From NCBI RefSeq assembly GCF_937910335.1, contig NZ_CALEMX010000549.1:1-49295 (forward strand): a stretch of 49,295 nucleotides of DNA. Direction: 5' to 3'. The notes beneath the pieces are model-generated. The model was not told the DNA's origin and did no database searches. It worked only from the letters and a program-made list of their open reading frames with translations. The translations under genes and the position numbers were made by a program. This document shows, one piece after another, positions 34,089 through 39,810 of this stretch; position 1 is the first letter of the stretch, and the number at the start of each line of letters is the position of its first letter. Source of the DNA: an uncultured Gimesia sp. GTDB lineage: Bacteria > Planctomycetota > Planctomycetia > Planctomycetales > Planctomycetaceae.

Positions 34089-34135
34089 AGCCCCGGGAAG
34101 CGTTACATTGCTTTCCGGGGCTGATTATTTTTATT
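34089..34135. terminator. Bidirectional intrinsic terminator
   Basis: AGCCCCGGGAAGC at 34089-34101 pairs with GCTTTCCGGGGCT at 34110-34122, with one G-U pair and an eight-base loop. A-rich sequence precedes it and TTATTTTT follows, so it can end transcripts from both sides. It lies between the convergent TPR gene (stop at 33991) and the ketosynthase-like gene (stop at 34168). Confidence 0.88.
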
Positions 34136-34167: not shown

Positions 34168-35469
34168 TCACGCACCGCAAATCACGGAAGCGCTGGCTTG
34201 CCCGAATGTCGTAGAGCTGATTTTCAAAAACAGTTTGTTATTTGTTGCCAGAGGTTCATTTCGAACCACATTCAAAGGGCAATCTGCATCGGGTGTTTCA
34301 TAGTTTAATGTCGCGGGAATCACACCCTGCTTGAGAGCAACCAGCGAACCACTGGCTTCGACAATTCCACAGCCAGACCCGGAATTTCCAAAGTAACTTT
34401 TAAGCGCCGTCACTGGAATTTCTGTGGCTTGATCCCCAAAGACATCCTGAATCGCCTGAAACTCTAAAACATCAAAAACCTGCTCTCCCAGGCCATGTGC
34501 ATTGATATGGCCGATATCACCCGGCTCGACCCCGGCATTTTTCAATGCCGATTTGATCGAGTTGGACATTGCCGCTCGCATATTAGCTGTTCCATCCCGA
34601 TTGATGACACACGAGGCACCAGAACCTAAAAGCTCACCCCAAATTTTTGCGCCACGATTTTCCGCATGCGATTTTTCTTCCAAAAGCAGTGAGCAAGCTG
34701 CCTCACCGACAACCTGACCTGTCCGCGTATTGTCAAAGGGACGAGAACGTTGAGAAAACTCGGCTGGCGAGTCTGCCAACTGATCCCAGAATTTGGCATG
34801 TATCGACTTGATCTCATGCACCCGAGTTCCCGTCACACCCGCAATCATCACATCAGCCCAGCCACGTTCTATGACGCGCTGCGCTTCCCCCAACACCAGA
34901 TTACCAGAGGCTTCTGCTTGTGTAATTGAGTTGCTTGGCCCACGTGCATCAATAATGATTCCAATATGGCACGCTGGCATGTTAGGTAGATACTTCAATA
35001 ACCACAGCGGTTCCATCTTAGGCAACCCATCGGCGCCCCATCGTTTGTATTCGAATTTGGACCCATCAGAACTGGCAACGCAAGCACCAAAAAGCACTTC
35101 AGGCGGGCTTAACATTAAATTGGCGCCGAATTCGATTCCGAAGCGTTCGCTATCGACTGCTTCCAGATCCAATGCAGAGTCTTCAACCGCCAGATTTGCG
35201 GAAGCCACTCCCAATTGAATTTCGCGGCACATGACCTTCAGGCTTCTCCGCTGATTCTTAAGATACTGTTTTTTGATCGTACTGGAATTGAAATCAGAAA
35301 CTTCGCCTACACAGGTATCTGGTGCTGCCAGATAGGCATATAATTCTGATTTTTTAATGCCCGATTTACCCGACATCAAACTCTCTTGAAACGCGTCCAC
35401 TCCGATCCCGATAGGACTGAGAATACCCATCCCCGTTATCAGAATTCGTCGTTTTGAATCTGTATTCAT
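34168..35469 (-). CDS. Beta-ketoacyl synthase-like protein lacking the catalytic Cys (chain-length-factor-like)
   Basis: A 433-residue protein of the thiolase-fold ketosynthase family, with 'ILITGMGILSPIGIG' at the N-terminus and 'RSRPFDNTRTGQVVGEAA' in the middle. Aligned with the neighbouring FabF, the nucleophile Cys is replaced by Glu (E186 in 'SITQAEASG'), the first His is kept (H325 in 'INAHG'), the second His is Asn (N362 in 'YFGNSGSG') and the Lys in 'LKSYF' is kept. It cannot condense acyl chains by the normal mechanism. Similar losses are known in chain length factors (KS-beta) and in decarboxylating KSQ domains. It lies downstream of fabF in the same orientation, 419 bp away, so a heterodimer with FabF or regulation of chain length is a reasonable inference. 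Confidence 0.85.
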   Translation of the reverse strand: MNTDSKRRILITGMGILSPIGIGVDAFQESLMSGKSGIKKSELYAYLAAPDTCVGEVSDFNSSTIKKQYLKNQRRSLKVMCREIQLGVASANLAVEDSALDLEAVDSERFGIEFGANLMLSPPEVLFGACVASSDGSKFEYKRWGADGLPKMEPLWLLKYLPNMPACHIGIIIDARGPSNSITQAEASGNLVLGEAQRVIERGWADVMIAGVTGTRVHEIKSIHAKFWDQLADSPAEFSQRSRPFDNTRTGQVVGEAACSLLLEEKSHAENRGAKIWGELLGSGASCVINRDGTANMRAAMSNSIKSALKNAGVEPGDIGHINAHGLGEQVFDVLEFQAIQDVFGDQATEIPVTALKSYFGNSGSGCGIVEASGSLVALKQGVIPATLNYETPDADCPLNVVRNEPLATNNKLFLKISSTTFGQASASVICGA

Positions 35470-35888: not shown

Positions 35889-37133
35889 TTAAGGAGCTTT
35901 TTGCAGGACCAGACAGGCATTATGCCCGCCAAAGCCAAAGCTGTTCTTCATCACCCGCTCAATTTTCATCTCGCGTGGCTCATTCGGGATGTAATCGAGA
36001 TTACACCGTTCGTCAGGTTCATCAAGATTGATGGTCGGAGGTCCAACCTGTTCCTGAAGTGCTTTCATAGCAACGACAAATTCCACACCCCCAGATGCCC
36101 CCAGTAAATGGCCTAAATGCCCTTTTGTACTGGAAACAGGCATCGATTTCACTCGCGCGCCAAAAACAGAATTGATCGCAGCTGTTTCTGCTACATCACC
36201 CAAAGGTGTGCTGGTCCCATGTGTATTGATATAATCTATGTCGTCGGTATTCAATCCGGCATCTTTAATGGCATGTTGCATGGCACGTGCCGCTCCACGC
36301 CCCTCAGGATCCGGAGCCGTCATATGAGTCCCATCAGCTGACATTCCATACCCAACGAGTTCTGCCAGAATGGGAATGCCACGCTTTTTGGCATGTTCAT
36401 ATTCTTCAAGCACGATAATCCCGGCACCTTCTGCCATCACAAATCCGTCACGATCGCGGTCAAAAGGACGACTGGCTGATTGAGGATCATCATTGCGAGT
36501 CGACAGAGCATTCATGCGGGCAAAGCCGGAAAGCCCCATCGGAGTCACGGCAGCTTCGCTACCACCTGTTATCATGATATCGGCTACGTCATGCTGAATC
36601 AGCTTAAATGCGTCTCCAATTGCGTTTGTCGCAGACGCACAGGCTGTCGCAACTGCGCTATTTGGACCTTTTAAACCATAGGTAACAGAAATATTTCCGC
36701 TAGCAGCATTCACCATCAACTTGGGAATCATAAAAGGAGAAACACGAGCGGGACCCTGATTGTAAAGACGATCGTGCTGACTTTCGATTTCATTCAGTCC
36801 GCCAATCCCACTTCCCACCAGAACGCCTCTGCGGTAAGGATCACCTTCAAAGTCTTCCAATTGAGCCTGCCGATAGGCTATATGAGCACCAACCAGACCA
36901 AACTGCACAAAGCGGTCGACTCGTTTCAGCTCTTTTGCGGTGATATTGGTATAATCTGCGGCGTTAAAGTCTTTGATTTCGCCACCAAAACGCACCTTGT
37001 AGTCGCTGCAGTCAAAGCGTTCCACCAAACCTACGCCACTTTTCCCAGCGCATAATTTGTCCCAAAACTCTGAGACATCCAAACCCAGAGCCGTTACAAC
37101 TGAAGCCCCCGTAACGACAACTCGCCTGCGCAT
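35889..37133 (-). CDS. fabF: Beta-ketoacyl-ACP synthase II
   Basis: A 414-residue protein of normal FabF length. It condenses malonyl-ACP with acyl-ACP in fatty-acid elongation. The catalytic triad is intact: C165 in 'VATACASATNAIGDA', H305 in 'INTHGTSTPLGD' and H342 in 'KGHLGHLLGASG'. Other family motifs are 'RRVVVTGASVVTALG', 'SRPFDRDRDGFVMAEGAG' and the C-terminal 'NSFGFGGHNACLVL'. AGGAAG lies 9 bases before the ATG. It follows acpP by 87 bp, the usual order in fab clusters. Confidence 0.97.
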   Translation of the reverse strand: MRRRVVVTGASVVTALGLDVSEFWDKLCAGKSGVGLVERFDCSDYKVRFGGEIKDFNAADYTNITAKELKRVDRFVQFGLVGAHIAYRQAQLEDFEGDPYRRGVLVGSGIGGLNEIESQHDRLYNQGPARVSPFMIPKLMVNAASGNISVTYGLKGPNSAVATACASATNAIGDAFKLIQHDVADIMITGGSEAAVTPMGLSGFARMNALSTRNDDPQSASRPFDRDRDGFVMAEGAGIIVLEEYEHAKKRGIPILAELVGYGMSADGTHMTAPDPEGRGAARAMQHAIKDAGLNTDDIDYINTHGTSTPLGDVAETAAINSVFGARVKSMPVSSTKGHLGHLLGASGGVEFVVAMKALQEQVGPPTINLDEPDERCNLDYIPNEPREMKIERVMKNSFGFGGHNACLVLQKAP

Positions 37134-37220: not shown

Positions 37221-37454
37221 TTAGCTGGCTTTCTCAGTGATATAACCAACGACATCGCCTACAGTTTTAATTTTGTCATAATCATCATCCGGAATCGTTA
37301 CATCAAACTCGTCTTCAAATCCCATAACCAGTTCAACAATGTCCAATGAATCGGCTTTTAAGTCGTCGATAAATTTGCTCTCAAGCGTGATTTCTTCTTT
37401 AGGATGGCCCAATTGCTCGCTAACGATACCAACCACTTTTTCTTCGATTGACAC
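37221..37454 (-). CDS. acpP: Acyl carrier protein
   Basis: A 77-residue acidic protein carrying the phosphopantetheine site S36 in '[18 protein letters not shown]'. It holds growing acyl chains as thioesters. It starts at GTG, with AAGGAG seven bases upstream, an excellent ribosome binding site. A promoter-like pair lies about 100 bases upstream. It precedes fabF in the cluster. Confidence 0.97.
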
Positions 37455-37848: not shown

Positions 37849-38757
37849 TCAGGAATCATTGATTGTTTCGCACGAAATCTTACGATTGACTCGCTTCATT
37901 AATCCTTTGAGTACCTTACCAGGACCAATTTCATAAAATTCGTCGAAGCCCGCATCAAGCATCTTACGCAGCGAATCTTCCCAGAGAACCGGGCTGATCA
38001 CCTGACGTATCAGTAATTCGCGAATCTCATCCGGATCTTCATGAATTTCCGCATCGACATTCGAAATCACCGGGATTTCAGGCTTTTTGAGACCCACTCC
38101 CCCCAATGCCTCTGACAACCGACTGTCGGCAGGTTTCATGATTTCCGTATGAAAGGCACCTGCAACCGCTAACGGAATTGCCCGGCCTCCCTCCTGCTCT
38201 GCCAATTCTGCTGCCCGTTCGCAGGCACTGTTTTCTCCGGAAAGCACGATATTTCCGGGGCATAAGTAATTGGCTATCCAAATTTTCCCCGCAGAAGAAG
38301 CCGCTGCACAGATCTCACTCACCTTTTCGCGATCCAGCAGCAAAACACTGACCATACCGGACGGATTGGCATCAGCGGCGGCCTGCATCGCTTCTCCACG
38401 ACGCTGCACAACACGCAAGCCATCTTCAAATGTCATGGCTCCAGCAAAAACCAATGCCGTATATTCGCCCAGGCTTAAACCAGCTGCCATCTCACAACCT
38501 AAGACTTTATCGGGAGAATCAGCACGTAACATTTCCAGAGCGGCCAGACTGGTCACAAACAACGCGGGCTGGCTGACAACCGTGGAATCCAGATCTTCAC
38601 TGGGACCTTCGAAACAAATCTTGGCCAAATCATATTGAAGTATTTCAGCTGCTCGATCAAAAAGTTCCTGCGCCGCCGGGTATTTTTCGACAATCGTTTT
38701 GCCCATGCCGAGATGCTGAGCACCTTGACCGGGAAATAAAAAAGCGATTCTGCTCAC
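37849..38757 (-). CDS. fabD: Malonyl-CoA:ACP transacylase
   Basis: A 302-residue protein of usual FabD length. It moves malonyl from CoA to ACP. The motifs are 'FPGQGAQ' (residues 8-14), the nucleophile S95 in 'GLSLGEYTAL', the arginine region 'VVQRRGEAMQ' and the catalytic H203 in 'GAFHTEIM'. It starts at GTG with GAGGG eight bases upstream, 51 bp after plsX. fabH, often found between plsX and fabD, is absent. Confidence 0.97.
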   Translation of the reverse strand: MSRIAFLFPGQGAQHLGMGKTIVEKYPAAQELFDRAAEILQYDLAKICFEGPSEDLDSTVVSQPALFVTSLAALEMLRADSPDKVLGCEMAAGLSLGEYTALVFAGAMTFEDGLRVVQRRGEAMQAAADANPSGMVSVLLLDREKVSEICAAASSAGKIWIANYLCPGNIVLSGENSACERAAELAEQEGGRAIPLAVAGAFHTEIMKPADSRLSEALGGVGLKKPEIPVISNVDAEIHEDPDEIRELLIRQVISPVLWEDSLRKMLDAGFDEFYEIGPGKVLKGLMKRVNRKISCETINDS

Positions 38758-38808: not shown

Positions 38809-39810
38809 TCAGGACACAGGTTTCTGTGCTAAATGTTCGGCAATTTGAGAGTTAATGCCGCGATCCTTGAACATGGCACTCCCCCTTAAGGCATTGGAGA
38901 TGGAATGGGCATCACTCGAACCATGACAAATGATACAGATACCATCAATTCCCAACAGAGGGGCTCCACCCGTCTCGTGATAGCGAAACCGCTTACCCAG
39001 ATCTTGAAATGCCTGCTTTGCCTGATTTCGTTCCACATCCAGACTGCCCAGAATATGCTTTGAAGCAGCCTGCATCAGGAAATCTGCCATTCCTTCACTG
39101 ACTTTCAACACCACATTCCCCACAAATCCTTCACAAATTAAAACGTCAGCCTCGCCCTGATAGAGACCTCGTCCCTCCACATTTCCGACAAAGCTGTCTT
39201 TCAAAGGACTCTCATTCAATAGCTGGAACGTTTCCCGATAAAGATCATTCCCCTTAACGTCTTCGCTGCCAATATTAATCAACCCGATCTTCGGAGATTC
39301 GATATGCAGCACTTCGCGGGCATAAATTTCACCCATGACGGCATATTGATAAAGGTGTGAAGGACGCGCCGAAGGGTTGGCACCAACATCCATGAGAACA
39401 GCATGACCGGCTGTTGTCGGCAAGGTAACCGCGATACCAGGACGTTTGACTGACTTCAAAAACAGCCGGGTTTTCAAGCCTGATGCGACCACTGCCCCGG
39501 TATTTCCGGCACTGACGATGGCATCCACTTCACGAGCAGCCATCAATTTCCAACAGATTGAAATCGAACTGTCCGGCTTTTGACGCATCGCTTCTGTTGG
39601 TTTTTCTTCCATGCCTACGACTTGACTGGCATGCGAAACCGAAAGGCGATCTCCCTGATAGCCGGAAGCTTCGATCTCTGCTTCGATTTGATCCTGAGGA
39701 CCAACTAATGTAACACACAGCGCAGGATCTGCCTGCAATGCCGAGATTGCGCCTTCGATATTCGGTTTGGGGGCAGCGTCTCCCCCCATAGCATCCAGTG
39801 CAATCCGCAT
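38809..39810 (-). CDS. plsX: Phosphate acyltransferase PlsX
   Basis: A 333-residue protein. PlsX converts acyl-ACP to acyl-phosphate for phospholipid synthesis and is peripheral to the membrane. Signatures are 'RIALDAMGGDAAPKPNIEGA' at the N-terminus, 'SAGNTGAVVASG', 'VLMDVGANPSARPSHLYQYA', 'NIGSEDVKGN', 'DVLICEGFVGNVVLKVSEG' and 'GAPLLGIDGICIICHGSSDA'. Its ATG lies only 6 bases after the rpmF stop, so translation is probably coupled to L32. This rpmF-plsX pairing is conserved in bacteria. Confidence 0.97.
   Translation of the reverse strand: MRIALDAMGGDAAPKPNIEGAISALQADPALCVTLVGPQDQIEAEIEASGYQGDRLSVSHASQVVGMEEKPTEAMRQKPDSSISICWKLMAAREVDAIVSAGNTGAVVASGLKTRLFLKSVKRPGIAVTLPTTAGHAVLMDVGANPSARPSHLYQYAVMGEIYAREVLHIESPKIGLINIGSEDVKGNDLYRETFQLLNESPLKDSFVGNVEGRGLYQGEADVLICEGFVGNVVLKVSEGMADFLMQAASKHILGSLDVERNQAKQAFQDLGKRFRYHETGGAPLLGIDGICIICHGSSDAHSISNALRGSAMFKDRGINSQIAEHLAQKPVS

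What the first reader, a model, noticed from the sequence alone, without database searches (positions are those of the whole stretch)
34168..35469. Ketosynthase-like protein with Glu-His-Asn in place of Cys-His-His beside fabF
Aligning this protein with the neighbouring FabF shows C165 replaced by E186, H305 kept as H325, and H342 replaced by N362, while the general fold motifs are retained. Known Cys-less ketosynthases are chain length factors and KSQ decarboxylases, which usually carry Gln. A Glu at this position together with loss of the second His is unusual. It may form a heterodimer with FabF that sets chain length, or it may serve a special lipid or polyketide-like product of Planctomycetes.
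Basis: partly seen in the sequence, partly recalled or inferred. Interest (0 to 1): 0.7.

Follow-up and report, generated by a model that had tools for sequence, protein, structure and literature searches.

The report
Cysteine-less ketosynthase subunit of Planctomycetes
This gene makes a fatty-acid-synthase-like protein whose reactive cysteine was replaced by an acidic residue once, long ago; nearly every bacterium of the class Planctomycetia carries it, it is very probably essential for growth in a model species, and it most likely works as the silent partner of an active enzyme in a second, unexplored fatty-acid pathway.

Summary
The protein at 34168-35469(-), here KSL1, has E186-H325-N362 where FabF has C165-H305-H342. 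It is not a sequencing error: E or D stands at that position in 95 of 96 orthologues, and 100 of 101 family genomes carry the gene. A second acidic paralogue (KSL2) exists. Rattray et al. 2009 had already tabulated Glu-His-Asn and Asp-His-His for two Rhodopirellula baltica paralogues, so the substitution itself is not new.

New here: (1) The acidic proteins form one clade (UFBoot 97), sister to Cys-bearing ketosynthases (100), so the Cys was lost once. (2) They are not FabF duplicates. In divergent lineages the acidic gene lies inside a second FAS-II operon, FabZ1-(FabG)-ACP2-FabZ2-KSL-KS3, directly before a Cys-His-His ketosynthase (KS3); elsewhere a Cys-bearing homologue holds that slot. (3) H325 was lost at least six times while the acid was kept; the dimer-interface segment is the most conserved part. 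(4) Planctopirus limnophila has exactly five stand-alone ketosynthases, two acidic; a published screen reports a five-member ketosynthase group, all essential.

Best explanation: an independently evolved, chain-length-factor-like partner, ancestrally of KS3 rather than FabF. Pairing, product and role of the acid are untested.

The parts
34168..35469 (-). KSL1: ketosynthase-like protein, 433 aa, E186-H325-N362
34912..34914 (-). Codon of E186, at the position of the nucleophilic Cys of FabF
   Evidence: E/D in 95 of 96 orthologues
34495..34497 (-). Codon of H325 (first catalytic His); lost in 22 of 96 orthologues, at least 6 independent changes
34384..34386 (-). Codon of N362 (second catalytic His of FabF; N 79, S 17 of 96)
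34963..34989 (-). Signature LPNMPACHI (residues 161-169) in the most conserved stretch of the protein (about 154-171); aligns with FabF residues about 133-150, the dimer-interface segment in KAS enzymes (location from general knowledge)
35889..37133 (-). FabF (KAS II), Cys-His-His, upstream neighbour on the same strand, 419 bp gap
   Evidence: TIGR03150 609.7 bits, over cut-off
37221..37454 (-). Housekeeping acyl carrier protein
37849..38757 (-). FabD malonyl-CoA:ACP transacylase
38809..39810 (-). PlsX
34089..34122 (.). Terminator-like 14-bp stem between KSL1 and the convergent TPR gene; the minus strand reads into a T run, so it can end the KSL1 transcript

Best explanation
KSL1 and its paralogue KSL2 are non-elongating ketosynthase subunits that work like a chain length factor but arose independently. 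Shown: a ketosynthase duplicated beside KS3 in a planctomycete FAS-II operon (FabZ1-FabG-ACP2-FabZ2-KSL-KS3), lost its nucleophilic Cys once in favour of Glu/Asp, and in most of the Planctomycetia duplicated and left the operon, KSL1 often landing beside fabF. Inferred: the protein pairs with an active Cys-His-His ketosynthase (KS3 ancestrally; FabF possible for KSL1), its conserved interface segment shapes the partner's acyl pocket, and the pair makes a specific, essential long-chain or hydroxylated acyl product on the dedicated ACP2. The buried acid is probably kept for pocket shape or electrostatics, not for catalysis.
For: Phylogeny: acidic clade UFBoot 97; with the Cys-bearing sister 100; both with KS3 97 (the node also holds one Streptomyces plasmid KS); planctomycete and E. 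coli FabF group apart, 96 (FastTree agrees). Operon: FabZ1-ACP2-FabZ2-KSL-KS3 in order in G110, G353, G111, G268 and G157; in G128, G162 and G147 the same slot holds a Cys-His-His homologue. A KSL-family gene is within 676 bp of a KS3-family gene in 13 genomes. KS3 is kept in 60 of 61 family genomes. Catalytic H325 was lost at least 6 times, the acid once; the Streptomyces CLF compared here shows the same pattern (Q-D-R). The interface segment has the lowest entropy of the protein (0.17-0.24 bits against a mean of 1.48), and the GFGGHN gate is replaced by an xGQ(A/S) motif. Essentiality: G074 is P. limnophila DSM 3776 (plasmid contig 100% identical to NC_014149.1) with exactly five stand-alone KS genes, two acidic; PMC10632474 reports a five-member KS paralogue group, all essential.
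Against: No interaction has been tested and no complex could be predicted with these tools. In the window's own family KSL is not in the KS3 operon, and KSL1 is often beside FabF (31 of 80 loci). K357 and E371 stay invariant, which could mean residual catalysis. KSL2 keeps the first His in 15 of 15. The five essential genes were matched by count and annotation, not read gene by gene.
Confidence: 0.58

Rival explanations
1. KSQ-like malonyl-ACP decarboxylase: Glu/Asp replaces Gln and the protein makes acetyl-ACP to prime fatty acid synthesis.
For: H325 with N362 resembles the His-Asn pair of FabH and chalcone synthases, and KSL2 keeps His-His in 7 of 15; both arrangements support decarboxylation in known enzymes (general knowledge). 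K357 and E371 are invariant in KSL1.
Against: H325 was lost at least six times while the acid stayed. FabH is present in the genome (C22) and in relatives, so no priming gap needs filling. The second His position is variable in KSL2 (H, N, S, Q, A, T).
Confidence: 0.12
2. KSL1 is a dedicated partner or regulator of FabF, tuning chain length of the main fatty acids, while KSL2 partners KS3.
For: KSL1 lies just downstream of fabF on the same strand in the window, in P. limnophila and in 31 of 80 loci.
Against: Many loci lack the linkage, with KSL1 among unrelated genes. The clade descends from the KS3 operon, not from FabF. FabF is a competent homodimer in other bacteria (general knowledge).
Confidence: 0.17
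3. KSL1 and KSL2 pair with each other and form a new catalytic site using the buried acid as base or nucleophile, for a reaction other than Claisen condensation.
For: The acid is the most constant of the three active-site positions; both copies occur together in most Planctomycetia genomes.
Against: Lineages with a single acidic KSL (G110, G111, G116, G353) pair it genetically with KS3; catalytic histidines are not conserved; one orthologue has Gly.
Confidence: 0.1

Closest known systems
Rhodopirellula baltica FabF paralogues NP_866153 (RB4527) and NP_865682 (RB3714), Rattray et al. 2009 (PMC2649909)
   Same: Glu163-His298-Asn333 and Asp163-His298-His333: the same substitutions at the same positions; probably members of this family.
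   Different: That paper only tabulated residues, in a search for ladderane genes. It gave no distribution, single origin, operon slot, essentiality or partner.
Chain length factors (KS-beta) of type II polyketide synthases, such as actinorhodin KS/CLF (1TQY) and the CLF in locus L183
   Same: KS fold without the Cys; a polar residue at that position while His residues are lost; gene next to an active KS.
   Different: Acid instead of Gln; separate origin in the tree; primary and probably essential metabolism instead of a secondary-metabolite cluster; mostly unlinked from KS3 in this family.
Rhizobial very-long-chain fatty acid cluster acpXL-fabZXL-fabF2XL-fabF1XL (PMC5613085, PMC11901934)
   Same: Dedicated ACP, FabZ and two tandem KS genes set aside from core FAS; the genes could not be mutated in Bradyrhizobium ORS278.
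   Different: Sequence relationship and active-site residues were not tested here; the planctomycete operon has two FabZ and often a FabG; its product is unknown.
AmcF-AmcG (KS with a Cys-less 'cyclization factor'), cispentacin pathway (PMC10698177)
   Same: A KS paired with a degenerate partner of a kind separate from CLF.
   Different: According to the paper AmcG lacks some CLF secondary structures and known motifs; KSL1 is full length with a clear KS signature.
KSQ loading domains
   Same: Nucleophilic Cys replaced, KS fold kept.
   Different: Gln in KSQ, domain of type I PKS loading modules; KSL is stand-alone, acidic, and often lacks the catalytic His.

Membership tests
FabF / KAS II (TIGR03150) | Score over the curated cut-off (493.75 bits) | tested here: not met
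   KSL1 258.8 bits; neighbouring FabF 609.7; KSL2 339.1
FabF / KAS II (TIGR03150) | Cys-His-His catalytic triad | tested here: not met
   E-H-N in KSL1; C-H-H in 45 of 45 FabF orthologues
Beta-ketoacyl synthase superfamily (PF00109/PF02801) | Both domains over the gathering score, thiolase-type KS fold | tested here: met
   95.5 and 78.5 bits; AF2 model matches FabF structures at E about 1e-40
Chain length factor of type II PKS | KS fold with the nucleophilic Cys replaced | tested here: met
Chain length factor of type II PKS | Gene directly next to an active KS gene | tested here: inconclusive
   Met beside KS3 in other lineages; in the window the neighbour is FabF, and in many relatives no KS is adjacent
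Chain length factor of type II PKS | Descends from the same KS/CLF lineage as actinobacterial CLFs | tested here: not met
   Only one Streptomyces KS/CLF pair was included; it groups with itself (UFBoot 92), KSL groups with KS3
[quoted passage not shown]
   No complex prediction or biochemistry available
KSQ decarboxylase | Gln at the Cys position | tested here: not met
   E 77, D 18, G 1 of 96
KSQ decarboxylase | Decarboxylating histidines retained | tested here: not met
   H325 lost in 22 of 96, at least 6 changes
Rhizobial FabF2XL/FabF1XL | Sequence relationship to FabF2XL or FabF1XL | not tested
   Only cluster layout compared, from papers

The most novel reading that the evidence does not exclude
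Planctomycetes run an essential second type II fatty acid synthase built around a KS3-KSL heterodimer: a chain-length-factor-type enzyme recruited into primary metabolism, with a buried Glu/Asp in place of the catalytic Cys, making an envelope lipid that the class cannot live without.
Probability: 0.35. Interest if true: 0.78.

Novelty: new variant of a known kind. Interest (0 to 1): 0.56.

Why it matters
Heterodimers with a Cys-less ketosynthase partner are known from secondary metabolism (polyketides, polyenes, cispentacin). If this reading holds, a whole bacterial class evolved one independently for essential lipid synthesis. It would point to an uncharacterised second FAS-II and make the open question of what lipid Planctomycetes build with it directly testable in P. 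limnophila, which is genetically tractable. It would also warn that automatic annotation of these proteins as 'beta-ketoacyl-ACP synthase II' is wrong about their chemistry.

Tried and rejected
Sequencing error or pseudogene: rejected (orthologues in the same genus keep Glu). Simple duplicate of FabF: rejected by tree. Priming KS filling a missing FabH: rejected, FabH is present. Universal fabF-KSL1 operon: rejected, linkage is partial. Membership in the actinobacterial CLF lineage: rejected on the one pair included. Papers: no work found on RB4527/RB3714, none on a Glu-for-Cys ketosynthase, and the searches for planctomycete very-long-chain or hydroxy fatty acids gave nothing usable. The AF2 model is low-confidence at residues 157-168, inside the conserved interface segment, so nothing was read from its geometry.

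Full report
What is there. The window comes from a Gimesia-like planctomycete genome (G000, 635 contigs; named relatives include Gimesia MAGs at 84-88% identity). The gene at 34168-35469(-), called KSL1 here, encodes 433 aa with both Pfam ketosynthase domains. Aligned with the neighbouring FabF (35889-37133, -), C165 is E186, H305 is H325 and H342 is N362. KSL1 scores 258.8 bits against the FabF model TIGR03150, whose cut-off is 493.75; the real FabF scores 609.7. The AlphaFold2 model (pLDDT 86) matches FabF crystal structures at E about 1e-40. KSL1 is the last gene after plsX-fabD-acpP-fabF on the minus strand, with a strong terminator-like stem just beyond it.

Conservation. A search of 101 genomes of the family found a match in 100 at E <= 1e-60. 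In 96 KSL1 orthologues the Cys position is E in 77, D in 18 and G in 1; K357 and E371 (337 and 351 in the window's FabF) are invariant; H325 is H in 74 and N, C, S or G in the rest; position 362 is N in 79 and S in 17. On a tree of KSL1 and KSL2 the acid changed to a non-acid once and H325 changed at least six times. The least variable stretch is residues 154-171 (PLWLLKYLPNMPACHIGI); its best 12-residue windows have entropy 0.17-0.24 bits per column against a mean of 1.48. It aligns with FabF residues about 133-150, which in KAS enzymes lie at the dimer interface and reach the partner's acyl pocket (general knowledge). The FabF gate motif GFGGHN is replaced by an xGQ(A/S) motif with invariant Q424.

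A second acidic paralogue. G000 contig C44 carries KSL2 (L039:1403-2689, -), with Asp at the Cys position and both His kept. In 15 KSL2 orthologues the position is E in 10 and D in 5, the first His is kept in all 15, and the second varies (H, N, S, Q, A, T). Of 52 Planctomycetia genomes in a phylum-wide draw all have at least one match at E <= 1e-70 and 48 have two or more; in three of these (G110, G111, G116) one of the two is a Cys-bearing relative. Outside the class matches are few and weaker.

Prior art. Rattray et al. 2009 (PMC2649909, Table 2) list R. baltica NP_866153 as Glu163-His298-Asn333 and NP_865682 as Asp163-His298-His333, and say these paralogues lack the active-site cysteine. 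The observation itself is therefore published for one species. No follow-up was found in the held library.

Origin. In an IQ-TREE analysis (80 sequences, LG+G4) all acidic proteins form one clade (UFBoot 97, including one divergent member with Ser); adding six Cys-bearing planctomycete ketosynthases gives support 100; adding the KS3 group gives 97, that node also holding one Streptomyces plasmid ketosynthase. Planctomycete FabF groups with E. coli FabF, apart (96). The one Streptomyces KS/CLF pair included groups with itself (92) (FastTree agrees). The Cys was thus lost once, and KSL is not a copy of FabF.

The second FAS-II operon. KS3 in G000 (C487:43127-44407, Cys-His-His) follows FabZ1, FabG, a 130-aa ACP with the motif GAESIDFLDI, and FabZ2. 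KS3 occurs in 60 of 61 family genomes, mostly at 67-77% identity, and usually keeps ACP2 and FabZ2 upstream. In G110, G353, G111, G268 and G157 the acidic KSL lies between FabZ2 and KS3 in that order (FabG not found in every case), in G268 overlapping or abutting both neighbours; in G128, G162 and G147 the same slot holds a Cys-His-His homologue. In 13 genomes a KSL-family gene lies within 676 bp of a KS3-family gene. In the window's family the KSL genes have left the operon; KSL1 is beside fabF on the same strand in 31 of 80 named loci, several of the others being cut by contig ends.

Essentiality. G074 is P. limnophila DSM 3776: its second contig (37,010 bp) matches NC_014149.1 at 100% over the 6 kb searched. 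A PF00109 search gives ten matches there; five lie in large type I synthases and five are stand-alone genes: FabF (CHH), KS3 (CHH), KSL1 (EHN), KSL2 (EHH) and one more CHH enzyme. [quoted passage not shown] The inference that these are the same five is strong but was not read gene by gene.

Mechanism. Shown: single loss of the Cys, retention of an acid there, repeated loss of the catalytic His, strongest conservation at the interface segment, an ancestral operon slot beside an active ketosynthase. Inferred: heterodimer with KS3 (or FabF), chain-length or substrate selection in a second FAS-II, essential product. The layout (own ACP, own FabZ, two tandem ketosynthases, apparently essential) resembles the rhizobial very-long-chain fatty acid cluster, so a special long or hydroxylated acyl chain for the envelope is my guess for the product; no lipid evidence was found. 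A malonyl-ACP decarboxylase role is less likely because the His is dispensable and FabH is present.

Verdict. Real, conserved, probably essential, substitution already noted in 2009; new variant of a known kind (CLF-like subunit with an acid at the Cys position, independent origin).

Noticed in passing
L199:10410-14411 (G000:C487): Uncharacterised second FAS-II operon FabZ1-FabG-ACP2-FabZ2-KS3 with a long 130-aa ACP; conserved across the family.
   Followed up: yes
L192, L193, L195 (G128, G162, G147): The same operon with two Cys-His-His ketosynthases in tandem: apparently the state before the Cys was lost.
   Followed up: partly
L052:9478-10833 (G007): The only KSL1 orthologue seen with a non-acidic residue (Gly) at the Cys position.
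   Followed up: no
L168:1948-3213 (G113): A divergent member of the acidic clade with Ser at the Cys position and both His kept.
   Followed up: no
L043:4407-12752 (G000:C83): Large 2781-aa type I synthase ORF with two ketosynthase matches in the same genome.
   Followed up: no
window:19034-22497: Three tandem paralogous membrane proteins with a similar N-terminal zinc-ribbon-like start (MTIEFSC).
   Followed up: no
window:27400-30228: IF-2 with a short DSPG repeat ([18 protein letters not shown]) in its N-terminal region.
   Followed up: no
window:41544-42704: Protein with weak squalene-hopene-cyclase repeats and a CVSCH haem-binding-like motif.
   Followed up: no
L120 (CAMAXD010000021.1): Record titled 'Candidatus Kuenenia stuttgartiensis' carries a Planctomycetaceae-type KSL1 (53% identity); probably a mislabelled MAG.
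   Followed up: no
window:37133-39810: The core fab cluster here lacks fabH and fabG; FabH is on another contig (C22).
   Followed up: partly
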